The translations under genes and the position numbers were made by a program. 64,000 bases of DNA. It comes from Pseudocercospora fijiensis CIRAD86. Taxonomy: Eukaryota; Ascomycota; Dothideomycetes; Mycosphaerellales; Mycosphaerellaceae. The number at the start of each line of letters is the position of its first letter. Positions within the stretch are counted from its first letter, which is position 1. Positions 4,065 through 27,202 of this stretch are shown piece after piece. Below the pieces are notes generated by a model, which saw nothing but the letters and a program-made list of their open reading frames with translations, had not been told where the DNA came from and searched no databases. Location of the stretch: positions 3,660,936 through 3,724,935 of the forward strand of contig NW_006921538.1 in NCBI RefSeq assembly GCF_000340215.1, in the 5' to 3' direction.

Positions 4065-4118
4065 GTCTGTATAGTGTTACTTAGGAAGTCGTTTTTGCAT
4101 GATTATAGTATCTAGGAT

Positions 4119-4143
4119 TAATGCTACCCCGGGGGTGTTATTA
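4119..4143. repeat. GC-centred palindrome, copy 3
   Basis: TAATGCTACCCCGGGGGTG then TTATTA, placed just after the end of the degenerate ORF at 1314-4064. The same motif sits just after the chromodomain end of the Ty3 pol at 46035, a parallel position in a different element. Confidence 0.55.
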
Positions 4144-5170: not shown

Positions 5171-5200
5171 ATTGTAGACCACACTGACGGAGTGCGTGAT

Positions 5201-6040
5201 TCACACTTTATGTCGAAGTAGCACAGAATTGCCGTCGTATTGCACATCAAAAGCTGCCATCAGATCGCGGCCAAACCTCACATTACGCACAGAAGCTTGC
5301 TTCTGCTGATGACACCTCCGGAGAAGCTTGAATGGCTTCTTCTGCCGCCCGGACATAGCGTCCCACACCCACTTCACACTTTCTGCGAACTTCAACTCCC
5401 ACCCGCGACTTAGACGATGCAAAGCCGCAGACGACTCTGCCCTCCGCTGAGCGCAGAACAAGAAAAGCTCGAATCGACTCTGAAACGTGGGCTCCACTTG
5501 AGAGATTGCGTTCTCCTTGGATCTGGAGGACTTGCTACAAGTGCTCTTTGGCGACTTCTGGTCGATGTTTCTAGGTTGGGATGTCTAGTCTGCGTGCGTC
5601 GAGTCGCGGTGTCTGCTTTGCGTCGCATCAGGTCGTGATATCGTGTCTCTCTGAGCATAGCTGTTAAGAACGTTTTGTACGGAATGGGCCAGCGTAGCAC
5701 GTTCATCGAGAGTCTTGAGCGCAGGCGCAAACAGCTTGCTTAGGATTCGCAGCTTGAGATCATGGTCGGTCGTAGAAGCACATGTTGCTGAGTCGAGTCT
5801 CTTGTTTGGTGTAATCGAAAGCTCCATTTGCGTACCAGCGCTTATTGTCTTCGATCCCTCCGTTTGCGTACTAGCGCTGCTTGTCTCCGATCCGTAACTC
5901 TCAGGTGGCCATGCAAGAAGGCCTCTAGTTTCGAGCTCTGCGATGATGGCGGTCCATATCCGTCGGAATGTCTTCCGATGTCGTCGGAGCGATTTGTTTT
6001 GTATCCGATGGGTCCTGCTGCTGTTTCTGTGCTTGTCTGT
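5201..6040 (-). pseudogene. Left-facing cluster gene 1: HMG-like fragment with in-frame stop
   Basis: On the minus strand one frame is open from 6040 to 5201 apart from a single TAG at 5587-5585. The first in-frame Met is at 5827, but coding-like sequence continues upstream (an Arg-rich helix ending FRRIWTAIIAELETRG, then WPPESYG), starting just after a TTAG acceptor at 6041, so an upstream exon is likely. A segment with LFAPALKTLDER resembles LFAPAVETILDD of the gene at 7883-9733. After the stop, a segment with FELFLFCAQRR resembles the FPTAQSLFLFHAK box of the gene at 20970. The shared C-terminal CW(I/L)C domain is absent. The stop could be a RIP-type CAG to TAG change, since the RIP-mutated block begins about 400 bp away, or may lie in an unrecognised intron. 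It is divergent to the gene at 6377. Function unknown. Confidence 0.5.
5826..5892. repeat. Short tandem repeat inside cluster gene 1
   Basis: Two copies of a unit of about 33-36 bp (TTTGCGTACCAGCGCTTATT... and TTTGCGTACTAGCGCTGCTT..., each followed by TC(T/C)TCGATCC-like sequence). On the minus strand it encodes a repeated Ser/Thr-rich peptide containing SA(S/G)TQ(T/M)E. The frame is preserved, which supports coding use. Confidence 0.6.
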
Positions 6041-6376
6041 CTAACTGTTGAGCGGATTACAGTCTACCATTATAGATCTTATGATTCCGTTCCTCGTACT
6101 ACTGTCAGGCAACTTGGGCTCTGCTATGCTTTCTCTACCGAGGCTACGCTGTCTCTCGCGGTTCAGGAGTACACCTTGCAACCTTGTCCTAGAGGTCTCT
6201 CATTTGAGTTGTTCCTTAACTAGTGCTCGGGAGCAAACGACCTTCGCACGCCAGGACGTAGCGCTGTCTGCGTGATGGTTCCTCAAGCACAGAACTGCTT
6301 CCAATCGGCAGGCGAGTCCACATTCGTGCTTGCGGCTGATCCAGCGACTCCAAAGCAACTGAAAAGCAGCTAAAAG

Positions 6377-7746
6377 ATGACCAAGCGTCGTTCCAGGCCA
6401 CCAAGCGACGAGCTGGCACTCAGCCATCTCCTGGAACATCGTATCAGTGCAAGCGGCCCGGAGTATCTGGTTCAGTGGATGCCCTCGCTGCTGGACCGCG
6501 AACAGGTCATCGCTCGCTCTGATGGAACCGCGTTCGTCGAATTGAATGGCGAGGAGTTCGACGTCAAACTGAGCGTTCCCAAGGGACCTACACAATCATG
6601 GATCTTTTGGAGGCCGTCCTGGATCTCTCGAGTGGACTTGCTAGATTCACCGGACGTGGACATGGAAGTTGTCGATATGACAAGTTTTGAGCCTGTGCTC
6701 TGTGATTCACGTACCTCGCGATCATTGCCAGATGGAAGGTTCATGCCCGATGCCGGCTGTGATCACCCGGTCAGTTTCCTCGAGAGGCTGCACGCCCCTC
6801 TATCCACCAAAGACGATGCAAGCGGCCGTTGGTCTCAGCATGGCCCACCAAATGGGACGATGGGCATTGGGATGGAGCCCAGACAGCCCTTGATCTTTAC
6901 GGACCAATTCTGTGAACGGAAGCTCCTTGTCAATGTTGCAAACACACGATCTCGAGACGCCATAGCCCTGCAAGTGGTCGGACTTGCACTGAAAGTGCCG
7001 TGCAACAACTGCGCAGGCGGAAAAGGCACGTTTTCACGCTGCGTGATTGATGCCAACCGCTCGGCGTTCAACGACGCGTGTGCCAATTGTGCCTTCCGAG
7101 GCCTTCGGAGCTCACCATGCAGCGTGGCAGGAGAGAACTGTAAGTACAGAGACATGGTTTGCAATGGATGGCAATGACGCTAAGTGCGTGCAGGTGCAGT
7201 CATCGAGTCGACATATAAGTCGGTTGCACAGCAGCTTCAATCCCGCCCTCAAGTGACCGAAGTCGTGCGGGCCGATCCTGTCCATGGAGAGACGTCGCCT
7301 TGTCTATCACGCAAAGGCAGAGCTATCACCACGTCTGCAGATCAGCCCGTGCGGAGGAAGCCAGAAATGACCGTCAGAGCTGCGCGCAGTCCTGCTAAGT
7401 CACGAGAAGCTACGGGGTCTTCAAGCAGTCGAAAGACGAGTTTGAAGAGTACGAAAATCGTGCGAGGACGCCTAGCAAATCCCTACGCGCGAGGAACACG
7501 AAGAATACCGACTGGGTGGCGAGTAGGAGAAGAGACATCCGCCGTGTCCGGTATCGATGTGATGCTCTTCGCGGGGCATTTTACCACAGCGCTTATGATT
7601 CTTGGGTAGCAGAAAGAGTCAGAAAGCAGAAGAAGCTACGGTATCAATCCATTGAAGCTTTTCTGCTAGCAGGCTACTCGAAGGACTTGGAACGCGATGC
7701 TGCAGGCATCCTGGCAGGAGATTCAAAAGCTTCGCATTTCTCGTGA
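6377..7746 (+). CDS. Right-facing cluster gene 1: chromo-like and six-Cys protein
   Basis: ATG at 6377. Exon 1 (to 7139) encodes a chromo-like strand pattern at residues 18-45 (LLEHRISASGPEYLVQW), a Trp-rich segment (WIFWRPSW, 75-82) and a cysteine module at 209-248: C-x2-C-x9-C-x12-C-x2-C-x9-C. A GTAAGT intron, 7140-7193, follows directly, at the position where both paralogues also have an intron. The 3' part contains CDALRGAFYHSAYDSW and LLAGYSKDLERDA, matching the C-terminal helices of the genes at 10448 and 24212, but in a different frame from the sequence after the first intron. A second intron, possibly 7333-7406 with a weak GTCTGC donor, would join them; otherwise the gene is frameshifted. 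The gene is divergent to the one at 5201-6040, with about 340 bp between. Probably nuclear; function unknown. Confidence 0.6.
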
Positions 7747-7882
7747 GGCTTGGTGGAACAGGCGAGTCTCAGCATGCTTGTTTGAGAAGGCATACCGGTC
7801 CTTGATGATGCACTTGAAATCACTCACATAGTCATGCATACCTTTTGGTCTTCCGGGCACGAAACCGGCCCCAATTGTGTGC

Positions 7883-9733
7883 CTATTGCTGCAGTGCAAC
7901 GTCCATAGCGCAACGCCGATCCCCATGTTCTTCAGAGCACAGCCAACACGTTCCGTGCATTTCTACAGGCTTGAAGCAAAGCCCGACATGTCTGCCGCTG
8001 AGACGTATGTAGAAACGCGTCAAGCCAGGTGACTGCACGAAGTAGGCGACGATCTTGCGAGAGGACGAGGCTGCATCGACTTGCATGGCAAAGTCAACCT
8101 GGGAATGAATTTGGAAAGTGACGAGGACGAGCTCCCGATGGGTGACATCCTGCTCGACATTGGCCGCAAACGTCTTGGGTGGCTGCAATGGCAGGTATTC
8201 AGGAAAGAACCGAAAGTCTCTGAACAGAACTGGGCATTCCATGAGCTCTCTATGGCCATACCGCGGAGATTTGCACGTGACGATCCAGAAATTGTCCGCC
8301 AGCTGTGTCACGCTTTGAAAAGAGCGTTCGCCGCCTTTGAAGGCTTCCACGCAGGCCTGTTCCAGCTCCAGCCTGGATTCCGCTGAGTCGGGCGCCACCG
8401 GAATCTCTGGAGTGCCGACCGGGAGGTAAAAGACGTAAAGATCAAGCTCATCGGATGAAGGCAGGTAGCAGTGCCACTTGACCGCCACAATGTCGCAGAC
8501 ATGGTCGTCGAACCACGAGTCAGATGAAATGGAGGCCTTCGTTGACACCTTGTCTGTATTCTTGGCAGTTTTGTTCGCAGGAGCGGAGGCATTTTGCTTC
8601 GCCGTTCTACGGCCATCGACGCCGAGAGCTTCACGCACCCACTCTTCCGGAGCGGGTCTCTTCTGCAAGACTGCACGCTTGTTGTTGACGGCAGATATAG
8701 TACGAGAGGCTCCGATCTTTGCAAGGTCCTTGGCGATTGCCCCAGAAGGCCGCTGAAGCCGCATGCCTTTCAATACAATCTCTTCCTCCTGCTCAGACCA
8801 GTCTCGCTTTTTCCCTTGCGTCGGACTGTCGGAACCGTCTTCGAGATGCTCGAATAGCGTTCCGTCCACATTCCGTCCGCATCTGTCCGTTCCCGGGCCC
8901 GAAAAGAAGTAACGAGACCGAAGCGACGCACTCTGGCTGTGGGGCGATGAACGAGTCCAAGATGTCGCGGGAGTCCTTGAGCCGTCGTCAAGGTGTCTCG
9001 CGCGTCCTGGAAGCTCCGCTTCAGTAGTAACAGCGTCCGCAGGACCACTCTTGCTCCCAAGAGCGGCATGCTTCATGTAATCGTGCGCATCGCTGTGCCG
9101 ATCCAGCGAGACATGCTCGGAAGGATGGTGTATTTCTTGCCTAGATTTGGAGACAGTCTCGTCATGCTCAGTGTCCATTGCCGCGTTAGTCAGGTCCACG
9201 AAGGCCTTCTTCGTCTGAGCGCGCAATATGTCCACGACTTTCTCAGCTCCTGCACCATTGATGCCGTGAGAACGGAGTATGCCGTCAAGATCAACGAAAG
9301 CCCGCTTGATCGATGCCGCCTCGGACAGGTGGACTTTAGGGAGTATCAGATCATCGAGAATTGTCTCCACGGCCGGCGCAAAGAGGCGCGGCGGGATGGT
9401 GCTTGCGCTGAGGATCTTAAGACAATGGCCCAAAGCCTCATTGGTCGAGTCCATGATGTGGTTTGGGGCGTGACCGGGGTAGTTTGAAGTTTTGATGCCC
9501 AGTGTGTGTTGGGGATGAGAAATGTTGTGGTGCTGAGAGTTCTCGCTGTTGCCCCCTTGCTCTTCATCATCGGTTTGGTAAGAAGCATTGCGAGAGGGAG
9601 AGCGCGAGGCCGAGTCGCGCGATTCGCCGGGTTCCATGAATGACTTGGTCTTTCGCTGAGGTGGTTCGATCGAATCACTCCTGCGTTTTGTTCCTTGTGC
9701 CACGCCATTGACGGTCCGCTTGGGCAGTGTCAT
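7883..9733 (-). CDS. Left-facing cluster gene 2: SANT-like protein with CW-C-H-C end
   Basis: A single open frame; I prefer the Met at 9733 (MTLPKRTVNG, 616 residues) because the paralogue at 20970 also begins around MPKRT. A GCTGAC...CGCAAG sequence just upstream could be an intron end. The N-terminal 300 residues are charged, low-complexity and basic in patches. Residues about 310-359 read as a SANT/Myb-type domain (RDWSEQEEEIVLKGM, then GAIAKDLAKIG and AVNNKRAVL). From about 415 to the end is a domain shared with the gene at 20970, with TPEIPVAPDS near its start, and C-x2-C-x3-H-x4-C (CWLCSEEHGDRRC) eight residues before the stop. This looks like a DNA- or chromatin-binding protein. The head-to-head partner starts at 10448. 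No known family recognised for the C-terminal domain. Confidence 0.75.
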   Translation of the reverse strand: MTLPKRTVNGVAQGTKRRSDSIEPPQRKTKSFMEPGESRDSASRSPSRNASYQTDDEEQGGNSENSQHHNISHPQHTLGIKTSNYPGHAPNHIMDSTNEALGHCLKILSASTIPPRLFAPAVETILDDLILPKVHLSEAASIKRAFVDLDGILRSHGINGAGAEKVVDILRAQTKKAFVDLTNAAMDTEHDETVSKSRQEIHHPSEHVSLDRHSDAHDYMKHAALGSKSGPADAVTTEAELPGRARHLDDGSRTPATSWTRSSPHSQSASLRSRYFFSGPGTDRCGRNVDGTLFEHLEDGSDSPTQGKKRDWSEQEEEIVLKGMRLQRPSGAIAKDLAKIGASRTISAVNNKRAVLQKRPAPEEWVREALGVDGRRTAKQNASAPANKTAKNTDKVSTKASISSDSWFDDHVCDIVAVKWHCYLPSSDELDLYVFYLPVGTPEIPVAPDSAESRLELEQACVEAFKGGERSFQSVTQLADNFWIVTCKSPRYGHRELMECPVLFRDFRFFPEYLPLQPPKTFAANVEQDVTHRELVLVTFQIHSQVDFAMQVDAASSSRKIVAYFVQSPGLTRFYIRLSGRHVGLCFKPVEMHGTCWLCSEEHGDRRCAMDVALQQ

Positions 9734-10447
9734 CTCTTGCGTTCTTCGCAATGTCAGCGCTGGAAAAGTCGCCGCAGACGTCGATAGTGATACATACGTC
9801 CCTTGGACACTCTGATGCAACTTCAAGCTGTCCTTCGGATAGGCAACACGCCCTGGAAATCTACGTTATGGCGGTGGGCGCGAGACTTCGCCCGCCATGC
9901 CAAAACAGTGAACACCCCTCTGAGGCTCTGGCCTGGTCCAGCTAAGGATGTTGACGCCATCTGCCGGATGTCGGGTCGACAGCTGGGGTAGCTATGGATT
10001 GGACCGAGAACACAGCTTGATGAAGTTCCTTGATTGAAATGGGTTCCAGCCATGCAACAGATCCACGACGAAGGGTGGTGACTGCTGTTTAACCATGATG
10101 ATAGACATCGAGGTGTTTGCACCTAAGATCTGCGGATGACATTCCACGTGTATGGTGCATCAAACCCATTGGGAAAGGGGATTGTCCAGGGTAGCTTGTC
10201 TTGCGAGGGCTGGGACTCAATAATGGCAATCTTCCAGCACCAACAGAGCCTCTCCCCTATTCGTAGTTTCGTCCAATGGCAAACCCTTGCTGACTTTGAA
10301 CGAGGACAACGTGAAGCAGAGGGACGGCGTCGTGGAGCGAGGCCGCCAGTCCTCTTCGGAAGGCACGTCTAGGTAGCATTCTCAGTTTTGATTCACTAGT
10401 TTTTGGATGATAGCATTCCGGGCAATTCGCGAACGACGAGCTTCTCG
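9734..10447. promoter_or_regulatory. Shared intergenic region of divergent pair 2
   Basis: About 710 bp between the starts of the genes at 9733 (minus) and 10448 (plus). No long conserved frame. It must hold both 5' ends; coupled regulation is suggested only by geometry. I see no clear palindromic operator or TATA pair that could be called with confidence. Confidence 0.4.
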
Positions 10448-11545
10448 ATGGGTTCGCCGGGACCCATAACGCCTCGCAGGCGACAGCCGCCCGAACGATT
10501 GGTAGATGTCCTGCAACGCGATGTACGTCCGACGATGGTGCTGCCTGTGCCAGATGATGAAATCCCATCTTCGCCTTCCGACGCTCATCGGCGCATCGCT
10601 CCAGGAAGCGATCCAATCGAGGCAGACTTCGGTGTAGCGACGATTTTAGAGAGGGTCACGGAATCTGGGCTCGATTCATATCTGGTGAGTTGGCAGCCGA
10701 CAGATGTTAGGGCAGATCAAGTGATCGAAGAAGATGGTGAAAGATTTGTAGACATTGATGGCGTGCGATACGGCCCGGTCGAGGAGATCTTGGGACTGGA
10801 AGAGCATGCCAATGGTGCGGATACAGTCACAGTGGTCTGGCGGGAATCGTGGAGATCGGTCTGGAGATTGGGACGAGCGTTGGGCTGCGTGGCCGAATAC
10901 TACAGAACGCATCCGGAGGAAGACGAAGTACGGAAGTTGCAGCCTCGCTTCTGGAATTGGTACAAGCTGGATCCGGAGAAGTTGCGACTCCAGATTGAGG
11001 CGATGTCTTGGGCCGAAGTGGAACTCGATGGCAGTGACTTTGAGCCCGAAGACATCAACTACACAAAGCCCTTGATGACGCTGTGCAAGCGTCTGCTGAA
11101 GCAGAAAGCTCATCCGTGGGTTCGTCTCCTCAACATGCCGGTCATGCGGCTCCTCACATTCACTCGACGCTGGATTGAGAAGGGCCACTTTCACATTGAG
11201 CGAATGTCGAACCTGAAAGCCATGTTGGTGCACTGTGTTGGCACCGAGAAGATGGATCGCTGCAGTGCCTGCGCTGATCCCCAGGGTGAAGTGCCCTTCA
11301 AGGGATGCGTTGTGGACGATGCCGAATTTCGTGGAGCATGCACCAATTGTGTCGTGTTGGGAGGTGGACGGGAGCAGCAATGCGAATGGCATCATGGCAG
11401 TACGCGAGACTGATCCCGCCGTGACGACCTGAGTGCTGACAATGTACAGTCCGTTCATGCGAACGAAACGGTTCGAGGCCAGCCGGAGACGTCATAAAGT
11501 CGAGAGAAGAGGTCGAAGAAGGACTCACTGACGGCGGTCGAAGCA

Positions 11546-11747
11546 GTAAGTCTGAGCGGAAACGAAGCGGCCTGAATGCTGATGCTTTGCAGCGGAAGAG
11601 TTCGAGACCGGAGAAAGTCAGCCGACTCCGGCCAACGACCGTTCGAGTAAGTCATGGCGGAAATGTAAGGATCGGAATGCTGACGATCTGCAGCGGAGGA
11701 GGAAGACTTCCTGACAGGAGAAAGTCAGCTGAGTCCGGCCAACGACC
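11546..11747 (+). repeat. Tandem 101-bp duplication of an intron plus exon
   Basis: Units 11546-11646 and 11647-11747 abut. Each starts with a 47-nt intron (GTAAGTC...GGAATGCTGA or CTGAATGCTGA... ending TGCAG) followed by 54 nt of coding sequence with (A/G)GAGAAAGTCAGC and CCGGCCAACGACC. The 101-bp unit is not a multiple of three but the 54-nt exon is, so the frame survives only if both introns are removed. The encoded peptides match: TGESQ-x2-PAND in both. Confidence 0.85.
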
Positions 11748-12448
11748 ATTGGATGTCGGGAGGTCTGGGTGATGCTTCCGACAACGACGTGTCGGAAAGA
11801 GAATCAGGCGGACAACCACCTGTCGACAAATCCGGTATGAAAAAAAAAGTCCGCCCCTATCAGGCAACAAGATGCTGACGAGAGCCAGTTGAAGTGCCAG
11901 ACAGCCGCCCCGCAACACCATGCACGACGGAAGATGATGAGCCGAACAAATTGGCCTCAGATCCCCAAACAGGAGAGCGGGGTGCGACACATCAGTCTCC
12001 ATGGGCGACTGGCGGACAGGAATTCTTTTCCAAAGGGTCGAGTGGTCTTTTCGTCACGCCCGAAAGAGAGCGTGATGGCCCGAAAGCCGAAGCTTCTCGC
12101 CACGCCTCACGATCGGAGTCTGTCTTGGCCTTCCGCCCAGCCTCTCATGCTGTGTTTGCAGGTCCAACGGCGGGAAGCCTGTGGCCCGAACCGTCCCGGT
12201 CGATGACGAGCGAAGGCCGCATTGGTTGGGCCCCGGCGAAGAAGAAGCGCAGAGATGAGGCTCTTCCCACTGCGAGCACTCCGCAGCCGAAGCGCCAACG
12301 AGCGTCCTTAGAGCCAAGTACTCCCCGAGTCGGCAAGCACAAGGCATGCGGGAACAGCTTCACTTGTCTCGATCGCGATGTTGGATGTCCAGACGGCTTG
12401 AGTGGAAGAAGCATGATCTACAGCAATCATCGGTTCGACGGTAGTGGG

Positions 12449-12453
12449 CAAGC
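12449..12453. repeat. Target-site duplication, left copy (CAAGC)
   Basis: CAAGC immediately before the 5' LTR is repeated at 18977-18981 immediately after the 3' LTR; a 5-bp duplication is typical of Ty1/copia integration. It defines the insertion point within an exon of the gene at 10448. Confidence 0.9.
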
Positions 12454-12620
12454 TGTGACGCGTCAGCTCAGTCACATGACAAGCACGTGACTTCTTGGCC
12501 TGAAGAATTTTCATTGTATTTTAGACTATAGAATAGAGCAGAACATAGGCAATCAACGAAGCCAATTCAACCGCCGGCAATGCAGTATTACGTAAGTAAT
12601 CCACTGCGCTGTGCGTGATA
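12454..12620 (+). repeat. Copia 5' LTR (167 bp)
   Basis: Begins TGTGACGCGTCAGC and ends GTGCGTGATA; a terminal CA changed to TA by RIP would explain the TA end. It differs from the 3' LTR at seven sites, each a CA or TG here versus TA there. Confidence 0.92.
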
Positions 12621-12634
12621 GTTATAAGCCCGGA
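12621..12634 (+). other. Primer-binding site, half-tRNA iMet type
   Basis: GTTATAAGCCCG directly follows the 5' LTR. It equals the complement of the anticodon-loop region of fungal initiator tRNA-Met (known to contain GGGCUCAUAAC) except for one TG to TA change of RIP type. Priming from an internal cleaved iMet fragment is established for several copia-class elements, including copia and Ty5. Confidence 0.65.
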
Positions 12635-12819
12635 TTTAATCCGCGGTATTAGAGACTTCTACAGTAGGAAAGAATTTTTCCATCCTACGAGACCTTCAAC
12701 AATCGACAACAATCGACAGTCTTAACGGCACTAAGAAACAACTATTCAAGCTTCTACAAGCCTCTACAATCGTTTCGAATTCAGTATATCCTTAATAGCC
12801 CTCTCATCAGCTAGTCGCC

Positions 12820-15800
12820 TCGGTAGCAGCAAGCTTATTATCCTTCGTAGACCCAATAATTAGGATCGATAGTTTAAGCAAACTAAGACGTATCTAACTA
12901 GATATAAGACCTAGGTCCTTGCTGACCTATATTCGACTAAGCTAACTGAACTAGCACAACCCCTTCTCCCGGAATTCGATATGGAACAACTTATAAGCAA
13001 TCCCCTATATTAGGCTAGGGCAAAGCTTACTAAGGAACACTTTGATATAAGGAAGGCGGAGTTTGAACGCTTTAGGACAGCTCGCAATAAGATAATTGAA
13101 TATCTAGCTACAACTGTAGACATTCGTTATTATTCAGAGATTACTAATCCTAATGCAGACAACGTAGTACCAACTATACGGCTTATTCTAACTCGATTGA
13201 AGAACAAGCTTATACCTAACACTTAATAGCAAAGGACTGCCCTTAGCAAGGAGCTTCACCGCCTTGTAAATTCCAAGCAGGTAAAGGACCCCGAGCACTG
13301 GTATAAGGAATAGCTTGACCTTTATAAGACAATGAAACGCATACAACACCCGGAATTTGACAACTTAGTAACCTACCTATATACTGCAGTTATAAATGTA
13401 GATAAGACCTATAGTAAAGGGCTCTATATAATGCACTAGGTAGGGCTATTAGTCAACAACTTCTATCAACTGATTAGCATAGTACGAGAATATGCCCGCA
13501 ATATGCTAGGTACTTCTAAGAAGGGTTCATCCTTTGGCATTATCTACGAAGAAGGTGAAGCTAGTGCCAACGCCGCTCTGCAAGCTGCAGACGACAACGA
13601 TAAGCCTAACAAGAACAAGGGCCGCAGTAACAGTGGCAACCGTATACTAAAGACCTGTGCTAAGCTTACTAGTATAGGTGAGAAGAAGGCATATGAAAAC
13701 CGCGGTAAGTGTACTGTAGTGAACTACCGACTTCGTAAACAAGTTGAAGAGAAGGATAAGGACAACAAGTAGAAAGGAAAGCTAAAGTACTTTGAATCCT
13801 ACCTACGTAAGAACAAGGGCTTCTGCTTAAGACAGGCTAAGTTCTTTAAGGACCTACTAGCCATTAAGATTGCCCAGCAGTACTATAGACTCTCGTCTGA
13901 AGATAGAGACGATGCTAGAACAGGAAATGGATTAGACAAAGTCTCACTAGCCTGCTTCTTCAAACCTAACATACTAGACCTATTAGCCTTTGCATCAGTT
14001 ACTCTTATACCAACCACCCATCTGTTAATAGCTACAAACAGGAACAAGAAATGGAACCCCTTCATTAGACTAATGTATAATAGCGGATCTAACTGCAACA
14101 TTGTCAACTACCCTAGTCGCTTCAACTTTTAGGCTATATTTATTCCACCGCGAGCCACTATAGTAACTGGTACGGGATACAATAAAGTCATCGCAATCGG
14201 AAGGGCATCCTTCACTGTTATTTCAGTAGCAGGTAAACCCCTAACTATTAAACTAAAGGAATGCCTCTATATCCCTAACTTCTATACTAATATTGTTAGA
14301 GGAGCAATCTTCTATTACCGTAGGTTTAAGCACAATAAGCTTGATGATGTCCTTTACAATCCATAAGGGAAACTACTAGTCCCTCTTATTAGACCGGACA
14401 ACTACATGCCCTATTTCGACATTACCTACGAAGCAGACGGTAAACCTCCGCTCGAATAGCCAATAGGGGATGAAGGCAAACCATATCTATACCCCTTCTA
14501 ACTGTCTCAGTTATCCTATGCAACAGCCCGTCGCTCCGTACGCCTACTACCTCTAAGGAAGCTTACACTGAAGCAAATACATAAAGTGTTTAGGCACCTA
14601 GGTGCTGAAAGAGCAGAAGAGCTAGTTAACAGGGTTAATAGGATAAAAAGGGATCATACATATAATAATGAGGTACTAAGAACACCACTGTGCCCTATAT
14701 ATACATAAGCAAAGGGCAAGAGGCTCATTTCAAGGAGACTAAGACACTATAATGTGTCAATATTAACTATATATAGGCACATTGCAGCCGATTTGATACA
14801 ACTGGACCCGGCCTACAATGGTAACTAGTACATCTTTCACGTATACGACTTGAATACTAGACTTTATTTCACATAGACAATCAGTAATCGACAGGAATCA
14901 ACTCTTCTATAATGCTAGAACCAAATAGCCACTTTCGTACGCAGCATTGGGCGAGACATCATCTGTTTGTTATCTAATAATAAAGGAGGCATCTCAGGCC
15001 TTCGGTTTCGATCGTATTTGCGCAATAACCACACTACCTAGAGGCTAACAGCCCCGTACATATCAGAACAGGACCCAGCTAAGCGAGCAGGCCGTACTAT
15101 TATTGAGGTGGCTCGAGCCTTAATAATACATACTGGGTTCCCTCACAACCTATAGCTAGAAGCAGTTTATATAGCTACCTTCCTCGCCAATAGATTACTA
15201 AGGTCTCGAACCGCTAACTTACTAATGCGAACACTATATGAGATTAGCACTAGGCATAAGCCAAATGTAGCCTATATCTACTAGTTTAGTACAAGGGCAT
15301 ATCCAGTGATCTACGGCATAGAGACAGCCAATAGCAATAGCAAAAGGAAGGCTATACTGCCAAACACTATGAAAGTAGCCTTACGGACTTACATTGGGTA
15401 CCTATATAGTTATAAGGGACACTCTATCTATAGGATATAGGTGCCCTCAAGGATAACAGTGCTACGCACAAGAGATATTATATTTGACGAAACCAAGTTC
15501 TACAACGGCTATAATAACGACCTAGGCGTTGTTATAACTAACTAAGAGCTTGCAGAAGAATACAGTGATCTCGAAGAAGTACAAGCACCCGCCTCGGAGC
15601 ATTAGTTTGACGAACTTCGAGAAGCCTACGACACACCTCTAGACCTTATCAGGTTTGGAGCTAAGGGGGTGGATACACTAACAGGGCCTAGTCGACTCAT
15701 AATAGTTAACAGGCTAACAGATGACCCTATTAGACTAGAACTACTACTACCTCAACCACCAGCACTAGCTGAGCTATAGCTTGTATAGGTACCTATATAG

Positions 15801-17932: not shown

Positions 17933-18809
17933 TGTATAGTTGTAGGGGCATATAAGGAAGCAACTCTTCCTCTAACAACCTCTTCCTCTTTAGCAATACG
18001 AAGACAACTCTATATAATAGGTAGTAGTGGCCCCCCCCTATTCACTACCAATTGTAACTAAGTCGATTGAGTACACCTTCATCGATTGGCGCTAACAAAA
18101 GTGTCTAATACGATAGCGACGACCAATCAGGACAAGGGATTCAACCTTACCTTCTAATAGGAAACAAACAATAGTATAGGCAACCTTACCTTGCGGGTTA
18201 CGTTACTGTCGCCGTTGCCTATATCATTACTTCGAGCGTTACTTCTACCAACCAATAATAAGTCTGCGGCGATTGTATCAGTACTAGTAATGATAGTACA
18301 GTAGTCTTAGCTAAGGGTGGCGTCCTTAGTTAAGTTATCTATCCTAATTTATTAAATCTGTTCAACCAATGTATACCTCACTTGATCCTTCCGTCCAATT
18401 AAATAGACGCTACCTATACGATTGATCTGATAACCGATAGTAATAGTATAAAGGGCTCAGTTCAAATTGAACTAACTTTACTGCACGATACGAGTACTTA
18501 GATGAGGCTCAATAGTGTCGGTCTGTGCTTAGACTACGTAGGAAGACAACAGTTCCTAGTAACAGGGGCTATATGTGAAGGTGCACATGCAGTCCGGATT
18601 ATATAACGATATCCTTCTAGGGTAATCGGGGTATAAAATAAGACTCTCTTATATATAGTGTAGATTCAAACCATTTTTTTAGTGTTTTGATAAAGCACTA
18701 TATAAGAAGTCGAAAGGATTAATTTTTCTTTTGTTTACATATAAAGAAGCATTAACTACCTTGCCTAAAATGGAAGGCACTCCCCTTTTTTGTACAAGCT
18801 GAGGGGGTA
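17933..18809 (+). other. Copia 3' noncoding region and polypurine tract
   Basis: About 880 bp without coding signature between the end of RNase H and the 3' LTR. GAGGGGGTA at 18801-18809 abuts the LTR and serves as the polypurine tract. A C-run occurs near 18030. Nothing else recognised. Confidence 0.65.
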
Positions 18810-18976
18810 TATAACGCGTCAGCTCAGTCATATAACAAGTACGTGACTTCTTGGCCTAAAGAATTTTCATTGTATTTTAGACTATAGAATAGAGCAGAAC
18901 ATAGGCAATCAACGAAGCCAATTCAACCGCCGGCAATGCAGTATTACGTAAGTAATCCACTGCGCTGTGCGTAATA
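18810..18976 (+). repeat. Copia 3' LTR (167 bp)
   Basis: Begins TATAACGCGTCAGC and ends GTGCGTAATA. Identical to the 5' LTR except for seven RIP-type transitions, so the element was inserted recently enough that no other substitutions have accumulated. Confidence 0.92.
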
Positions 18977-18981
18977 CAAGC
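18977..18981. repeat. Target-site duplication, right copy (CAAGC)
   Basis: Second copy of the 5-bp duplication seen at 12449-12453. Reading across the pre-insertion site keeps the host frame open. Confidence 0.9.
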
Positions 18982-19228
18982 CAGTCCCGCTGAAGTGCGC
19001 TTCATTGTCGGCCGATGCAGTTGTGCGAATGCCGAGAAGTTGAGGCGTGCATATCGAGATCACATTGCGCACAGAAAAGAGCGCGGGATGAGTGTCGAGG
19101 GCCTGTCGTTTGAAACAGTGATGTCGCAGAGATTCTGGGAAGTTTTGAACGAGGTCATCAGACTGGGATGTCCGCCTCAGCCGGGGGTGGGCTTTGCGCC
19201 AGGAGAAGAGATCGTTCTCGACGACTGA
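18982..19228 (+). pseudogene. Right-facing cluster gene 2, 3' part beyond copia
   Basis: Continues the gene at 10448 in the same phase after the copia insertion: SPAEVRFIVGRCSC, then MSQRFWEVLNEVIRLGC and the end GEEIVLDD. It aligns with the C-terminus of the gene at 24212 (TPQVRYLLSLTPCN, LSRSWTRELNQIVRDRC, VVIDLTMDD). This shows that the C-terminal helical segment is a family feature and that 10448-12453 and 18982-19228 were one gene. Without its 5' part it has no plausible start of its own. Confidence 0.8.
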
Positions 19229-19585
19229 GTCGATATCCCGTACATTCGGTGCGTCTGTTCTCGCGCGTAGCTTTCCTCGCGCCGCCATTCATTGTCCCTG
19301 GCCAACACGCCTGGTACTGCCCGTGAGCGGACCGCGGCTGGTGGTGTCTTGATGTGGGGCCGATGGAACTGGAGATGCAGCGATGGAACATGTCGATGTC
19401 TACGTTATTCTAGAATACTGTACGGGGAAGCAAACATTGCACTCGACTCGTGTCGACCGGGCAAGTCTGCACCATCCATCCCATCCATCCCATCCATCCC
19501 ATCCATCCCATCCATCCCGTGAGTCCGCCTCCGTTGAACCCGGCGAATCACCATCTCCGCTCCCCGGCCTTGCTCACCCGAAGCT
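19229..19585. other. Intergenic, with CCATC-type microsatellite
   Basis: Convergent intergenic region between a right-facing and a left-facing cluster gene. A perfect 10-bp tandem repeat (CATCCATCCC, about five copies) occupies roughly 19473-19519. No gene seen. Confidence 0.7.
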
Positions 19586-20350
19586 TCAAGGCAAGACGGC
19601 TCCAGATGCAGCCCTCCGCACTCTCACATGCTCCCCCAGCGTCCTGTCGATGGCCTGGATGATTTTGGGTGAGCGGAAAGTGTTCACCAGCACATCGACA
19701 ATGCACTTCGCCTCGGCCGAAGTCAAGACGTCGACCACGTGCTCGAATGTATCCGCGTCGTACTTCCGCATGCACTCGTACGTGCCCGCCCAGGTGGCCA
19801 GATCTTCGTAGCTTTGCACGCTCGCGGCCGAAGGCAACCGATGATGGACCAGGATCTTGATCGCTTCGGCAACGATGGGCCAATCTTCAGGCATCGTCGC
19901 TACGTTCTGGAGGCACACTTCGATCATGGAAGGCTGCTTCGAGGAAGATGTTGAGGTCGCTGCAGCAGGCTGCTCAGTGCTGGGGCCGGGTGGACCCCGT
20001 TCCGCCGGATCACTTCGCCGACGTGCGCTCCCTGAGCTGATCTGGCGTCTCTTCCTCCCGTTCGCAGTCGGCTTTTTCGGCGCTTTCTTTCGTTTGGCAG
20101 TGGGAGTGTACGACCCGTCAGAGTCATTGCCCTCGTCGTCTGCTTGAGCCTCCTCATCCTCCTCCTCCTCGTCCTCTCGCTCTTCTTCCGGATGTGGGCG
20201 TGGTGGTGCCATCTCCGGCTGGGCACTCGGTTCCTCCGGCTCACTTTTGATACCAAACTGCATGCAGGCGGTCTGCTTGCTGCGTTCGGCGATCTCGTCG
20301 ATGAGAGCGAGAGATCGGGAAGGCTGCATATCTGGCGGCATTGACGGCAT
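19586..20350 (-). CDS. Left-facing cluster gene 3a: truncated paralogue
   Basis: A 254-residue open frame from ATG at 20350. N-terminal DEIAERSKQTACMQFGIKSE resembles DRLAKRSKRRAYETLKIKNE of the next gene (20970). A strongly acidic run (EEREDEEEEDEEAQADDE) then a basic run (KRKKAPKKPTANGRKRR) follow. The second half (CLQNVATMPED... SAEAKCIVDVL) matches the helical region of the 20970 protein (CLDLFAAFPN... PAEMLQTICDKL). The HMG-like boxes and C-terminal CW-C domain are missing, so it is a short paralogue or a truncated copy. It has no right-facing partner of its own: upstream is 620 bp of noncoding DNA and then the end of the next left-facing gene. Probably nuclear; function unknown. Confidence 0.7.
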   Translation of the reverse strand: MPSMPPDMQPSRSLALIDEIAERSKQTACMQFGIKSEPEEPSAQPEMAPPRPHPEEEREDEEEEDEEAQADDEGNDSDGSYTPTAKRKKAPKKPTANGRKRRQISSGSARRRSDPAERGPPGPSTEQPAAATSTSSSKQPSMIEVCLQNVATMPEDWPIVAEAIKILVHHRLPSAASVQSYEDLATWAGTYECMRKYDADTFEHVVDVLTSAEAKCIVDVLVNTFRSPKIIQAIDRTLGEHVRVRRAASGAVLP

Positions 20351-20969
20351 ATGGATGCACTAGATGATCGACAATGTTGTCTACTTGAAAATGACGCGAG
20401 TCTGTTGATTGTGCTTCTTGTTCCGCGCCACGGCACTCCGCGTCTGTAGACGTAATGAACAGACCAGCATCCGGTGAAAGAAGCTTCGTCCAAGCTCAAA
20501 TTTGGGCTACATCTTCATCAATCGCTTCATCTCTGAGGCTGAGGCTCACAAGTCAAGATCTGCGCAAGCTCCAGCAACGGAGTGCGGTAGGTTGGTCTTG
20601 TGCCATATTCTCGGTATCGTGATATGGAAAGAGTAACGAAGACATGCACGATGTATCTAATCCGTTGTACATAACACCGTAGAGTTCTCACGATGAGCGT
20701 GAGTTGACCAGGTCCCCTGCTCAAGGATGTTCGACAGAATCGACACGGTCGCTGACCATTGCGCGGCCGAGATTACAAGCATGCTATAGAATGACCGCGA
20801 TCAAGGAATACCAACTCCGTACAGCCGCGAAGATTTAAAGAGCCCTACGGAAAGTGCAATGGAGACAGATGATCTTTTGTGAATCAGGAGAATCGATACT
20901 ATCTGCAATAATATACGTGCTGTCACGATTGGCCAGAGCACGGGAGTGCGTCTCCATCAAGCGCTCTAC
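20351..20969. other. Intergenic, nothing recognised
   Basis: About 620 bp between two left-facing cluster genes. Short frames exist on both strands but none resembles a cluster protein or has a convincing start and splice structure. Confidence 0.6.
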
Positions 20970-23183
20970 CTACGATGCAGTCACTGCCAGAGCCATGGGA
21001 CAGACCTGACCGCCATGAACTATGCGGCAAATCCAGCACCTCGTATTCTGGTCGAAGCTGCGAAAGAAGACATTGTATGGAGCAGTCATGCCCTGCACCA
21101 TGATAGGTATGTAGAAGCCGAACAGGTTCGGTGGTTTCGGAAAGTACACCAGAAGGCGGCGACGAGTGCCATTCCTTTGGTCCAGCAGTGTTGGTGCTGG
21201 CAAGCCGCGTCTCGACATTTCCCGTCTGAGCTTTCGGAGTAATCTTGTGGCGTCCAGATCGAGATGACGCGAAATGCTCGCAGAGAACACGCTTGTTGGG
21301 CACGAAGGCAGGTGATTGGAGATGAGCTTGAACCCGCGTAGGAACATGTGCCGACCAAGAAGTTGACCCTGATGGTTGGCAGAGTTGGCATCATATGCAC
21401 GCAAGCAGACACCCCATGCCTGAGAGCTGAGAGGCCGGAGTTCCACCACTGAAGCCAGACCTTCGTATGCGGCTCGACAGCATTCTTCAACCTCGGCTCG
21501 AGTGGCGTCTGCGATAGGGAACTGGGGAGTGTTCACGAGAAGCAGCACGTAATAGAAGCCTGGCTTTCGAGTCCAGGTAACAAAGTCAACAAGGACTGTT
21601 GATTTATGGACAGTGTCTGCGTCAGATGGCAATGTATCGACTTTTCGCTGGCCTGCATGCGGTTCCCTAGGGAATCCTGCTGCGGACCTCGAAGTTTTAC
21701 AGGCAGAATCACCGGGTTTGTCGGCGGCCACCAACTCGGCATCCAAGGGATCAGCATGTTCCGATATGAACTTCATCAGAATCGGCTTGATCTTATGTTC
21801 CAATGACTTTCGGCTCTTCGTACTGAGCACTTTCTTGACTCCAGTGTTGTGCAGATCGCTGAGACGCAGTTCCCAAGACTTCTGGACCGGCCAGGGCAAG
21901 GTTTGCCAGACTTGCGAAAGTCGATGGCTGACTTGGTCGGAGTCCTGCCAATCCACAAGGCCCGACGTGGCCTGGTGCATTCTGAGGTGATACGCCAAGA
22001 GATGTAGACCGGTGGGAAAGTGTGCCTTGGCTACAACTGACCGCTCTTCCTGGCTCAATTGAGAAAAGCGAACATCGTCGAAGCTCCAGACGCAATCGAG
22101 GCTACGAGTGGCAGTTCTGTTCTGCTTGACTTCTCTGGGAACAGTACTTTGAGGACCAGGCTGATTTGTGAGAGCTTCCGCAGAGCTTGATGCTTGCAAG
22201 GTGTCGCTGCCGGCGATGACGGCTGCCACGATTCCAACGGCGGCTTGTTGTTCGAGAAGCTGTTGACCAGCTGGACCGACCGGTTTCTTGAGACCATCTT
22301 TGTGTAGGCGGAACAAGAGTTGCTCCCACTCCGATCGGGAATCGGCGCTGAGACGCGACCAAGTCTCGTGGAGGAGTGGCTCTACACTCTGCACGCCATT
22401 CGACGCAATTTTGATGCTGATGGCGCTGTTCGCCTTGGCGTGGAAGAGGAAGAGACTCTGCGCAGTTGGGAAGTGCGCCTTGGCCATTTCCACTCGCCCG
22501 ATTTTGTCCAGCGATTTCGATTTGTAGCGAGCCGGGTCAAACGCGGCATTTGCGTCTTGTGTGGCAGAGGCCTCAGCGGGCGCAGTCGCGGCCTCGAGTG
22601 TCTGACTTTGAAAGACTCTCGCCTGCACACCTCCCGGCCGTGCGCTTTCAATGCGCTTCCCCAGCTTGTCGCATATTGTCTGCAACATCTCGGCGGGCGG
22701 CGAGTGCTTGAACAATCGATCAAGAATGGAGTGATCTCCGCCAAGCACAGTTGCCTGGCTGTGCAACCACGTTGAGCAGTCGAGCGTCTCGCCGTCGCTC
22801 TGATTCAACGCATATTGTATCCAGCATTTCAGGAGCTCTTCTTCCGTAATACCGGCGGCATTGGGAAAAGCTGCGAAAAGATCCAGGCATTTTCTGATCC
22901 TTTGAAGCTGACCCGGTTCCCGTCGCTGCTCACCAATGACCTTGCACTCATCATCACCACTCTCCTGTACTTGAGACCCAGGCTTTGGCGGGGAGGACGG
23001 CGACGGCAGTATCGAGGGATCGGAGCCTACGTGTTGGGCCTCTTGTGGTGCAGCATCGGCATCGACATCGCTGCTATCGTCGGATTCATTTTTGATCTTG
23101 AGCGTTTCGTAGGCGCGCCGCTTTGAGCGCTTCGCAAGCCGATCCACAACAGATGGAGTTGGAGTTGAAGTTCGTTTCGGCAT
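20970..23183 (-). CDS. Left-facing cluster gene 3b: double HMG-like protein with CW-C-H-C end
   Basis: Single open frame. ATG at 23183 (MPKRTSTPTPSVVDRLAKRS) gives 737 residues; an earlier in-frame Met at 23210 would add nine. Positions below are counted from 23210. Residues 22-60 are basic then acidic; 105-185 is a helical region shared with the 19586 gene. Residues 243-310 and 394-460 are an internal repeat, each starting AKAHFPT and holding W-x2-L...W-x2-(L/R)L...LKK/VKK, like a diverged HMG-box. The last 190 residues form the domain shared with the gene at 7883 (NTPQFPIADATRAEVEECC; LLVYFPKPPNLFGFYIPI) and end with C-x2-C-x3-H-x4-C (CWICRIVHGGQVC). Likely a nuclear DNA- or chromatin-binding protein. 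It is head-to-head with the gene at 24212. Confidence 0.75.
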   Translation of the reverse strand: MPKRTSTPTPSVVDRLAKRSKRRAYETLKIKNESDDSSDVDADAAPQEAQHVGSDPSILPSPSSPPKPGSQVQESGDDECKVIGEQRREPGQLQRIRKCLDLFAAFPNAAGITEEELLKCWIQYALNQSDGETLDCSTWLHSQATVLGGDHSILDRLFKHSPPAEMLQTICDKLGKRIESARPGGVQARVFQSQTLEAATAPAEASATQDANAAFDPARYKSKSLDKIGRVEMAKAHFPTAQSLFLFHAKANSAISIKIASNGVQSVEPLLHETWSRLSADSRSEWEQLLFRLHKDGLKKPVGPAGQQLLEQQAAVGIVAAVIAGSDTLQASSSAEALTNQPGPQSTVPREVKQNRTATRSLDCVWSFDDVRFSQLSQEERSVVAKAHFPTGLHLLAYHLRMHQATSGLVDWQDSDQVSHRLSQVWQTLPWPVQKSWELRLSDLHNTGVKKVLSTKSRKSLEHKIKPILMKFISEHADPLDAELVAADKPGDSACKTSRSAAGFPREPHAGQRKVDTLPSDADTVHKSTVLVDFVTWTRKPGFYYVLLLVNTPQFPIADATRAEVEECCRAAYEGLASVVELRPLSSQAWGVCLRAYDANSANHQGQLLGRHMFLRGFKLISNHLPSCPTSVFSASISRHLDLDATRLLRKLRREMSRRGLPAPTLLDQRNGTRRRLLVYFPKPPNLFGFYIPIMVQGMTAPYNVFFRSFDQNTRCWICRIVHGGQVCPMALAVTAS

Positions 23184-23210
23184 TCTTGTCTCCAGTGGGT
23201 TAGCCTGCAT

Positions 23211-24211
23211 CTGAGCCGAGCCGAGCCGATTTGGTCTCGCTTACCTACGACAACGCTACACTCTTCCCGTCGTCTTCCTCGAGTGTGTTCGCTTTGGAAA
23301 GAAGGCCGCTCACAATGTTCAGAAGACGGCAGGGACGACTCCGCCGCCATGACCGCGATTGACTGATGATGCATGCTGCGTTTCCGTGAAGCTCTTTCCC
23401 GCCCCTGGATGCTCGAGGATAGTATGTGATGAAATGAACTTCAGATGAAGCAGGACCCCCGGCCCGGCCCGGCCCGGCCCGGCCCCTCTCGTGAGAGCAC
23501 TTCTATGTTCCGCTCGCTCCATCGCGGTGCGCCACACTCGATACCGCTCCCAATGGACTCCGAAGCGTACATGTTCTGCCATTGATCTTCTGCGCCGTGA
23601 TCTCGCGCGCCGCCCTCACAGTGCATGCTACGCCTGCCCCCCGGTCCATCCCAACAGGCATTGCACAGATTCTCATCCAAAGTAGGGGCAAAGTCGAACG
23701 GACCACATCCAATCCAATGCAGGACCACCGTGCGTTTCCATGGAGGAAGCCGAAGCCCCTCTGGTCCTCCCTGTACTGTATACAGTATGTGATGCGGCAA
23801 GGCGCCTGGCCCCTCTCTCCTGGAGCACTCTGATCTTCCTCCAATTCCATGGTGCTCCAAATGGACTCGCGGAACAGATGTTCTGCGAGCCTCCACGCCG
23901 TGATATCCCGCCTTCACTCTGCGTGCTACACCTCGATCGCCCTCCCTGCTCCATTCCAACAGGCATTGCACAATAATTTGAGAACCAAGCGAGATGCCAA
24001 CTCCCAACCTGGCACGTGGAGGCCGTGTTCCGCAGCTCTGAAGCTTTCGGTGCCACGGAAAGTCCATCATGGTATGGAGAGTCTAAGCATGCGCGCGGCG
24101 ACGCTATGACGGGCGCGACCAGGGAACTTACAGCGCGCGCGTCCAGGCGAGGACGCGCGCTCGCCTGTGATCAAACGTGTGAGTGGCGATGAAGGCTGAG
24201 TCGTCGTTGTC
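23211..24211. promoter_or_regulatory. Shared intergenic region of divergent pair 3
   Basis: About 1 kb separating the starts of the genes at 23183 (minus) and 24212 (plus). It contains a (GGCCC)n tract near 23458-23485 and two diverged copies of a segment of about 170-200 bp (about 23491-23690 and 23823-23985). A minus-strand open frame of 209 codons at 23441-24070 covers the repeat but reads as a GC-driven shadow. Confidence 0.5.
23491..23985. repeat. Diverged direct repeat in a divergent promoter region
   Basis: Copies near 23491-23690 and 23823-23985 share in the same order CCAATGGACTC / CCAAATGGACTC, ATGTTCTG, CGCCGTGAT, the GTGCTAC or CATGCTAC stretch, and CCAACAGGCATTGCACA. Identity is roughly two thirds by eye. 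Confidence 0.6.
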
Positions 24212-27202
24212 ATGCCTCTCTTCCTGTGGACCGATGCCGCCAAAGAAGTGAGACGCCTAGAGAAGCTGTCAATTGATTTCGAGAAACTACAGGACCAGAC
24301 CGAGTGGAACCGAGATCGGGTCAAGAGAGTCAGACGCTCCGCCTGCCCAAGCCCGGAGAAAGCATCAGAGATTGTGGACGAGTCAAAGTCTGGTATGTGC
24401 AGTTCTGAGAAAGAGGCATGCAACTGACCTGCAACAGCGTTTCCGATGTCAGGCTTTGTTCCGATCAATCGACCAGACCGGAAAACGACTCTTCCAGCAA
24501 GCACGGCACCGCCGAAGGAAGAACTCCCTGGACGAATACCACGTACGAGCGGATCTACTCCGCAGGACCAAAGGGAACCTGCCTCGGCTGCATCCAGCAC
24601 GAAAGAGCAGATCGATGCTTCGCACAGCAGGGAGCCCCCTAATGACAGGAGCCGAGGGCGCGAGGAGAACAAAATTCAGCCTGCCTCCGCTGCATCCAGC
24701 ACAAAAATCAATACTTCGAGCAGCAAAGAGGGCCCTGATGGCAAGATCCAAGAGCGCGAGGAGACTGGGCAGGACAAGCAAGCACAGAAGGTAGAGAAAA
24801 GCCTCGAGCAGCCTGCAGTCACTTCGGCACAGGTCCTCGCCTCCAGTGGCCAGAACGAAGATGGTGAGAGCGACGAAGACTCACTTCCCAGACTGAGGAC
24901 TCGCCGGCCAAGAGGGCAATCCCCGCGGAGCAGCGCTGCTGCTGCCAGCGACAGCGAGGAAAGCCGTACTCCACCCAGGAGGAGATTACGGCGTCCACAG
25001 CGCCTGCCAAGCCCGCAGCCGACCCAAAGTCCCTCCCCAGCACCCACTTCCACGCCGCCGGTACAGCTTGAAGATCGAAACTGGGCAGTGCTTGGCATTG
25101 CTGGTGCCCGCAAGTGCGCGGACATCGAACAATACCTGACGATTTGGGGCAACACAACTCATCGTTTGCCGACCCTACAGGCCAACGCGAATGGAACTTA
25201 TTCGATTGAGGTTGATGGAAGAATTTGCGAAATCGAGGACTTCGACAAGCCACATGTCCCTGGCGATGATACGGAGCTTCAGGTCCGATGGAAACAAGAG
25301 TGGTTGTACACCTGGGAGCTCTCCGATGCGCGCAGAACAGTCGTTGAGTTCAATTTAGGGAGAGGAGCCGGACCGGTGCTGGATCCTGACCACGTCGCGG
25401 GCTATCACTCTCCAGAGCCCGAGGCAGACACGACCAAGCGATGCAAGATCGATTTCGCAGCCAAGCTGCGCTTCACCCCTCACACAGACGAAGACTACAC
25501 TGCTAGTCTGATGTGGCGATGCATCGAAAGATGCGAGCAAAGGGCCAACCATGACAAGCTGTCGGACTACTTCATGCGGACGGCCCTTGACGAGCTCCCC
25601 CGTCAACGTCTGGTTCTGCGTCCTCGCTGGCGTACTGACGAAAAGAGCGACGAGTACAACGACGTGCTTGAACTCAGGGAAGAGGTTCTGCTTCGGGCTT
25701 GCTTGAATTATGTGGTAGGTCAGGCGCGTAGAACCGAGTGCTCATACTGTCAGGAACACTGCGGCCCATTTCGGAGGTGCGTGACAAGAGCGGCGAATCA
25801 CGAAGGTGCCTGTACGAACTGTGCCTTGGCGGGACGGAGCAGGCAGTGTGAATATTACATCAAAGGTTTGTCATGCACGATGATTGACTGTGCGTGCGTG
25901 CTGATCAGTCTAGACCGCTGGGCGCACGAAGACAAGCTGCGAGCAGCAGCCGATCCACAAACTCCTGACTCAAGAAGTCAAGTCACTGACGACGCCGATG
26001 ACGATTTGGAAGAGGATTTATACTACTCTTCACCATTACCAGCTTCTGGTCCTCAGGCTCAACATGCCAACCGCTCAGCATTTTTGACGCCGCCAATATC
26101 CTCACCTCCTCAGAATCTGTTTGCCGGTGCGGTCAAAGCGGATGCGAGTGGTCGAACCTTTGCTGAAGTGAGCGACTTGGCCACCTCACTCTTGGAGTCT
26201 CTTGGAGACCAGCAGCTCCCCGCGGGCAAGGACCGTGGTGATACGGATTCCGCTACTCTTGCAAACCTTTTCGGAGACAATGCCTCGGCGTCGCTGGAGA
26301 ATGATACCACGCTGCAAACCGGCAGTGGCCCAGAGGAGGGTCACTCGTCTCGGGCCAAATCAGATGTATCAGCGCGGCCCTCTCCTGAAGCCCGGCGGAA
26401 GGAAGATGCCAAAAAGGAGGGAAAAGCCATCAAGCGAAAACACAGCACCTCATCGATCGACCTATTGCGGCAGAATCAGCCCCGCCGGCAGCACAAAGTG
26501 GCCAGGACTGCTGAGCAAGCAGAGACGGAATCCACACGTCCTCATGTTGGGCATGACCATGACCCGCCTCCCGGTCCAAGTGGAGACGACGACATGACCC
26601 CCATGACTTCGAGGTCAAGACCTGATGGCAACGAGTCGCAGCAGCCTTCTGCACTGAATGGCTCTTCACAATCCCTTCCAATTCGTAGCGCGGCATTGGT
26701 ACACCCACCATCTCACTGCGAAGCTGGCACTTCTGCTCCCCATAAAGCAGCATCGGCGGCCAAACGAGGCCATGACCCGGATCCACATGCTCGGCTCGCA
26801 CACAAACGAGACCGACAGCGACCACACGCTCATTGCAGTCCTCGCGGACCATGTATCGATCCCGTCCTCAATCCTCCCCTTCCCAGGACCGAGCACGAAT
26901 CACCCGTCGTCATCTATCGCGATCGTGACCAGCTCTTCGCCAAAAGCGAGCTCACCACACCACAAGTTCGCTACCTTCTGAGCCTCACACCTTGCAACAT
27001 GATCGATTGCTTCACTCGCGGGTGGCATGAGTTCGCGGAAGAATTGAAGGGGAAGAAGGGCTTCGGGCCACAGTACAACAAGGAATGGTTTCTCTCCCGT
27101 AGCTGGACGCGGGAGCTCAATCAGATCGTGAGAGACAGATGTCCGTTGGACCCGAGGAGGCTTGGGCGGCCGGTGGTGATTGATCTTACCATGGATGATT
27201 GA
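24212..27202 (+). CDS. Right-facing cluster gene 3: long chromo-like/six-Cys protein with SIM
   Basis: Proposed exons 24212-24392, 24438-25865 and 25914-27202 (965 residues). Intron 1 is GTATGT...ACTGACC...CAACAG; intron 2 (48 nt, GTTTGT...GCTGATC...CTAG) is optional because the frame is open through it. Exon 1 is a coiled-coil-like start (MPLFLWTDAAKEVRRLEKLS). A long Ser/Pro/Arg-rich disordered part follows, then a chromo-like region (about 280-330), VRWKQEWLYTWEL (near 342), and the cysteine module at 495-531: C-x2-C-x9-C-x10-C-x2-C-x8-C with GACTNC. A 350-residue disordered stretch precedes the conserved C-terminal helices. The protein ends VVIDLTMDD, a textbook SUMO-interacting motif with acidic flank. 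It is the best preserved member of this family here. Probably nuclear; activity unknown. Confidence 0.75.

What the first reader, a model, noticed from the sequence alone, without database searches (positions are those of the whole stretch)
5201..27202. Tandem array of head-to-head gene pairs from two unfamiliar families
Seen: left-facing genes (5201-6040, 7883-9733, 20970-23183) each face away from a right-facing gene (6377, 10448, 24212). Left-facing members share an N-terminal layout and, in two, a C-terminal domain. Right-facing members share a chromo-like/Trp-rich part, a six-cysteine module and C-terminal helices. A fourth left-facing copy (19586-20350) has no partner. Inference: the pair, not the single gene, is the duplicated unit, so the two products probably work together. 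Diversification, truncation and damage, plus the transposon-rich setting, resemble loci under conflict or rapid turnover (drive, incompatibility, genome defence), but nothing in the sequence proves this.
Basis: partly seen in the sequence, partly recalled or inferred. Interest (0 to 1): 0.88.

Follow-up and report, generated by a model that had tools for sequence, protein, structure and literature searches.

The report
Decaying paired gene cluster in fungus
A banana-leaf fungus carries a small cluster of back-to-back gene pairs, apparently for nuclear proteins of unknown function; one pair was probably copied as a unit and the cluster is now falling apart, one gene having been split by a jumping element.

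Summary
The window is from Pseudocercospora fijiensis CIRAD86. The three right-facing genes are real relatives: each has a Pfam DUF3716 six-cysteine module above cut-off and a half-chromodomain-like N-terminal region. Of the left-facing genes only 7883-9733 (B) and 20970-23183 (C) share a C-terminal domain (E 1.7e-11), with no other place found in this genome. So 'the pair is the duplicated unit' is supported for B and C. It is not shown for A, whose left gene has an in-frame stop and no significant similarity. The 19586 ORF resembles only the N-terminus of left C.

Only pair C looks whole. P. eumusae has an ortholog of right C; no left-C partner was found. DUF3716 also sits, antisense, inside a high-copy Copia-like element. 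Most likely these are co-expressed nuclear, chromatin-type proteins in fast turnover; conflict or drive is unproven.

The parts
5204..6040 (-). Left A: open frame interrupted by an in-frame TAG at 5585-5587; family membership not significant
6377..7743 (+). Right A: open frame 6377-7177 (chromo-like region 6404-6679, DUF3716 at 6959-7126), then frames 7184-7606 and 7399-7743; how these join is unclear (an intron near 7148-7187 by eye; the intron scan listed none)
7883..9733 (-). Left B, 616 aa: Myb/SANT-like segment 8612-8827, C-terminal domain 7883-8494 with CX2CX3HX4C end
9734..10447 (.). Divergent intergenic region of pair B, 714 bases
   Evidence: coordinates; no k-mers shared by all three regions
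10448..12453 (+). Right B, 5' part: chromo-like region 10613-10936, DUF3716 11219-11386; candidate short introns with tandemly duplicated exon/intron segments 11545-11753
12454..18976 (.). LTR retroelement inserted in right B; direct repeats 12458-12620 and 18814-18976 are 96.9% identical, target duplication CAAGC; RIP-like base composition
18977..19228 (+). Right B, 3' part: C-terminal domain (similar to the end of right C) and stop codon
   Evidence: 0 of 2000 shuffles
19586..20350 (-). X: 254-aa ORF whose N-terminus resembles that of left C; fused to left C in the published gene model
20970..23183 (-). Left C, 737 aa: two internal repeats (22233-22496, 21789-22079; faint HMG-box likeness) and C-terminal domain 20970-21605
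23184..24211 (.). Divergent intergenic region of pair C, 1028 bases
24212..27202 (+). Right C: exon 1 24212-24392, intron 24393-24437, chromo-like region 25067-25387, DUF3716 25697-25855, C-terminal domain ending VVIDLTMDD; ortholog in P. eumusae

Best explanation
This is an apparently lineage-restricted cluster of head-to-head gene pairs encoding nuclear, probably chromatin- or DNA-binding proteins, in fast turnover. An ancestral divergent pair (left: modular protein with a C-terminal domain that may be tandem ferredoxin-like plus zinc-knuckle-like; right: chromo-like region plus DUF3716 zinc-type module plus C-terminal domain) was duplicated as a unit, giving pairs B and C. Right A is a more distant relative of the right gene (shown by sequence). 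The middle part of the left protein differs: Myb/SANT-like in B, a duplicated HMG-like repeat in C (partly shown). The cluster is decaying: an LTR retroelement split right B, left A carries a stop, X is partial (shown). Working model (inferred): each pair is expressed together from its shared upstream region, and the two proteins act as partners on chromatin, the right protein through its chromo-like and DUF3716 modules, possibly with SUMO contacts (VIDLT-type motif in right C, PsiKxE motifs in left C and X; motifs recalled and read by eye).
For: Right-family homology and DUF3716. Left B/C C-terminal homology, no other place found in the genome. Chromo-like first half: hhalign probability 60, 0 of 200 column shuffles as good. 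Myb/SANT-like segment in left B: probability 86, 0 of 200; HMG likeness: probability 8.6, 0 of 200. Split of right B. Low-confidence model of the left C-terminal domain shows two beta-alpha-beta-beta units. Conserved right-C ortholog in P. eumusae, so the gene is not a spurious ORF. The gene stretches lack the RIP-like composition of the LTR element and of window 1-5180 (RIP cut-offs recalled).
Against: No Pfam chromo, Myb or HMG match. The second half of the chromo-like region does not beat shuffles (11 of 100 as good). Both structure models are poor (mean pLDDT 55 and 37). No shared intergenic words. No P. eumusae left-C relative found although right C is there. Nuclear location, co-expression and binding between the partners were not tested.
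Confidence: 0.45

Rival explanations
1. Ordinary local duplication of neighbouring orphan genes: the right and left genes were copied together only because they were adjacent, and their products have no joint function; the cluster is neutral debris at the edge of TE blocks.
For: Only one of three pairs looks whole; no shared intergenic words; P. eumusae has right C but no left-C relative was found.
Against: Long intact left frames of 616 and 737 aa and a right-C ortholog 74% identical in the core suggest selection on at least pair C.
Confidence: 0.35
2. A genetic-conflict locus (meiotic drive, allorecognition or genome defence): paired partners act as killer/antidote or as matching partners, and diversify and decay for that reason.
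For: Diversified domains, damage and TE setting; a PF12511 gene was reported among strain-specific genes in Colletotrichum sublineola (passage of PMC5225507); DUF3716 is also carried by a Copia-like element.
Against: No drive or incompatibility domain among the Pfam rows; no population or cross data.
Confidence: 0.12
3. The right family comes from, or is cargo of, retrotransposons.
For: 6 of 11 DUF3716 matches in the genome lie inside copies of a Copia-like repeat, antisense to its genes.
Against: The repeat copies showed no chromo-like region next to DUF3716 (by eye). No repeat pair in the window flanks the cluster (0 of 11 self-matches); here the LTR element lies inside the gene, not the gene inside the element. 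Two more DUF3716 places without stops lie outside these repeats.
Confidence: 0.08

Closest known systems
Pfam DUF3716 (PF12511) proteins
   Same: Six-cysteine module above the gathering score in all three right genes
   Different: Here joined to a chromo-like region and a C-terminal domain, and placed head-to-head with an orphan gene; I found no described function (papers holding DUF3716: 0, IPR022190: 0, PF12511: 1)
HP1/CBX-type chromodomain proteins
   Same: First half of the chromodomain pattern is matched by the right N-terminal region
   Different: No Pfam chromo match; second half unsupported
HD1/HD2 mating-type gene pairs of basidiomycetes (recalled)
   Same: Head-to-head pairs of two different nuclear-protein families, present in several copies
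   Different: No homeodomain row in the Pfam scans; the fungus is an ascomycete
LINE ORF1 / gag proteins with RRM-like domains and a CCHC zinc knuckle (recalled)
   Same: Left C-terminal domain: two beta-alpha-beta-beta units in a low-confidence model, then a CX2CX3HX4C end
   Different: No Pfam match and no credible PDB sequence match; link to a LINE not shown

Membership tests
Pfam DUF3716 (PF12511) | profile score over the curated cut-off of 22 bits | tested here: met
   43.6, 38.3 and 31.3 bits for right A, B and C
Pfam DUF3716 (PF12511) | six conserved cysteines | tested here: met
   invariant in 3 of 3 window members and in 4 of 4 with the P. eumusae ortholog
Chromodomain (PF00385) | Pfam chromo match | tested here: not met
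   no chromo row
Chromodomain (PF00385) | chromodomain fold | tested here: inconclusive
Myb/SANT (left B) | Myb/SANT profile | tested here: inconclusive
HMG box (left C repeats) | HMG-box profile | tested here: inconclusive
   Pfam none; hhalign probability 8.6, 0 of 200 shuffles
HD1/HD2 mating-type pairs | homeodomain in both partners | tested here: not met
   no homeodomain row in Pfam scans
Copia cargo | gene lies between the LTRs of an element | tested here: not met
   0 of 11 window self-matches at E up to 1e-5 flank the cluster; the one LTR pair inside it splits right B. LTRs outside the window were not looked for
Meiotic drive or incompatibility system | transmission bias or hybrid effect | not testable with these tools
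   needs crosses and population data

The most novel reading that the evidence does not exclude
The divergent pair is a two-protein chromatin system in an arms race with retrotransposons: host DUF3716 chromo-like proteins plus an orphan partner act in silencing, and a high-copy Copia-like lineage captured a DUF3716 gene in antisense as a decoy or anti-silencing factor, while another LTR element has destroyed one host copy.
Probability: 0.06. Interest if true: 0.85.

Novelty: new variant of a known kind. Interest (0 to 1): 0.48.

Why it matters
DUF3716 has no described function in the papers searched. A divergent partner, a chromo-like region and presence inside a retrotransposon give a first testable lead (chromatin, conflict with elements). 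The left C-terminal domain is an orphan family as far as reach. The locus also shows a gene pair being copied, re-modelled and destroyed within one small region.

Full report
Source. The window lies in a 73.9-Mb genome in 30 contigs. Left C is 100% identical to part of MYCFIDRAFT_216247 of Pseudocercospora fijiensis CIRAD86 and right C to part of MYCFIDRAFT_78222. The published assembly is 74.14 Mb (passage of PMC4981473). This is the fungus of black Sigatoka of banana.

Right-facing family. The three genes (A 6377, B 10448, C 24212) are related. blastp E-values are 1.3e-12 (B/C), 1.0e-7 (A/C) and 2.3e-5 (A/B). Their chromo-like segments beat all 500 shuffles in 3 of 3 pairs. All carry Pfam DUF3716 above cut-off (43.6, 38.3 and 31.3 bits), with six invariant cysteines. 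The N-terminal 'chromo-like' description has partial support. The second half is not above shuffles (11 of 100), and Pfam lists no chromo match. Right C has a first exon at 24212-24392 and an intron at 24393-24437; the exon aligns with the N-terminus of the P. eumusae protein AC578_11132. That ortholog is 74% identical in the core and 64% overall, and keeps a VVIDLT-like end. It has no counterpart of 16 residues after DUF3716, so an unrecognised intron is likely there (by eye).

Left-facing family. Left B and left C share about 190 C-terminal residues (23% identity, E 1.7e-11), ending in CX2CX3HX4C. In the whole genome the searches found this domain in 2 places only, both here (the third row is a Myb-like segment elsewhere; only the best candidates are scored). 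In 1837 candidates of the protein collection the only match at E up to 10 was the gene itself; that search needs shared 5-residue words, and did not show left B either. The rest of the two proteins differs. Left B has a Myb/SANT-like segment (hhalign probability 86, 0 of 200 shuffles as good). Left C has two internal repeats (z 15.2) with a faint HMG-box likeness (probability 8.6, 0 of 200 shuffles). X (19586-20350) shares the N-terminal stretch with left C (z 7.7, 0 of 500), including a PsiKxE motif (by eye). The published model fuses X to left C; which is right needs RNA data. Left A is not supported as a family member. Its best N-terminal similarity is to left B (7 of 500 shuffles as good); its second half is not above shuffles against the C-left repeats; and it has an in-frame TAG.

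The split gene. An LTR element occupies 12454-18976: direct repeats of 163 bases, 96.9% identical, flanked by the 5-base duplication CAAGC, with RIP-like composition (TpA/ApT 1.51, against 0.26 for the 5' part of right B). At its far edge the open frame 18956-19225 matches the C-terminal end of right C and of the P. eumusae protein (z 6.4 and 7.4, 0 of 2000 shuffles each). So right B is one gene, interrupted. I compared the two sides apart and did not join them.

Is the pair the unit? For B and C both partners are homologous and in the same divergent order, which a single pair duplication explains most simply. Among right members, B is closer to C than to A (33% against 27%). For A only the right gene is shown; X has no partner. 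The three intergenic stretches share no word of 8 to 11 bases, where shuffles expect 0.7 at 8. P. eumusae has right C on a 68.6-kb contig, but no left-C relative appeared; this weakens but does not refute pairing. The P. eumusae gene was also the only non-self hit for right C among 2847 candidates.

DUF3716 elsewhere in the genome. One search lists 11 matches at E up to 1 (9 of 11 over the cut-off): 3 in the window, 2 elsewhere without stops inside (C12:772015, in a frame with C2H2-type fingers by Pfam; C1:7488543), and 6 with stop codons inside. All 6 lie in copies of two related repeats (four at about 94% to each other; two at 87% to each other and about 65%, in part, to the four). One copy, the only one examined for it, has 184-base terminal repeats at 90.8%. 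Its other strand carries Copia-like integrase, reverse transcriptase and RNase H pieces (by eye); one piece matches RVT_2 at E 2.5e-4, below the family cut-off (1 of 6 pieces in that call, and 0 of 2). DUF3716 is thus antisense, between RNase H and the 3' LTR. A 1-kb probe next to it has 42 matches, 31 of them over at least 970 bases at 90% or more; in 27 of these 31 DUF3716 itself was not listed.

Mechanism. Shown: relatedness, DUF3716, splitting and decay. Partly shown: Myb-like and chromo-like modules. Inferred: nuclear location, co-expression, partnership, chromatin role. The C-terminal model of the left family (pLDDT 55) suggests two ferredoxin-like units; the right-core model (pLDDT 37) is not usable.

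Literature. Searches for DUF3716 and IPR022190 found 0 papers, and PF12511 found 1. Of that one I saw a passage: of four strain-specific C. sublineola genes without other database matches, one carries PF12511. Of PMC4981473 and PMC4981457 I saw passages only; other papers I saw only in listings.

Verdict. The locus is an interesting, decaying cluster of a DUF3716 gene and an orphan partner, not a demonstrated system.

Noticed in passing
L021-L026 (G000 C3:3209726, C12:306223, C18:132976, C1:10481849, C8:2096802, C10:2965377): A high-copy, RIP-degraded Copia-like LTR retrotransposon carries a DUF3716 coding stretch antisense to its own genes, in two diverged subfamilies.
   Followed up: partly
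L019:2403-5735 (C12:769402-772734): An open frame of 1111 aa joins C2H2-type fingers to DUF3716 and has an acidic VIDLG-type motif (by eye); it lies next to a below-cut-off F-box match, in a GC-rich island between AT-rich stretches.
   Followed up: partly
L020:3937-5304 (C1:7487436-7488803): Another DUF3716 place without stops inside the domain; the open frame after it resembles the C-terminal region of the C12 gene (z 3.0, 0 of 500 shuffles). No left-type C-terminal domain was found there.
   Followed up: partly
window 11545-11753: Tandemly duplicated exon plus short intron-like units in right B (75-85% identical).
   Followed up: no
window 23546-23667 and 23854-23972: A 72%-identical direct repeat inside the intergenic region of pair C.
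   Followed up: no
L027:3520-5457 (C7:3534519-3536456): A 646-aa open frame about 130 kb away has a Myb/SANT-like segment 38% identical to that of left B.
   Followed up: partly
window 33898-35421, 53243-55078, 56079-57056, 58344-59864: Ordinary flanking genes by Pfam: S28 carboxypeptidase, multicopper oxidase, AhpC/TSA-like protein, RPN7/PCI protein.
   Followed up: yes
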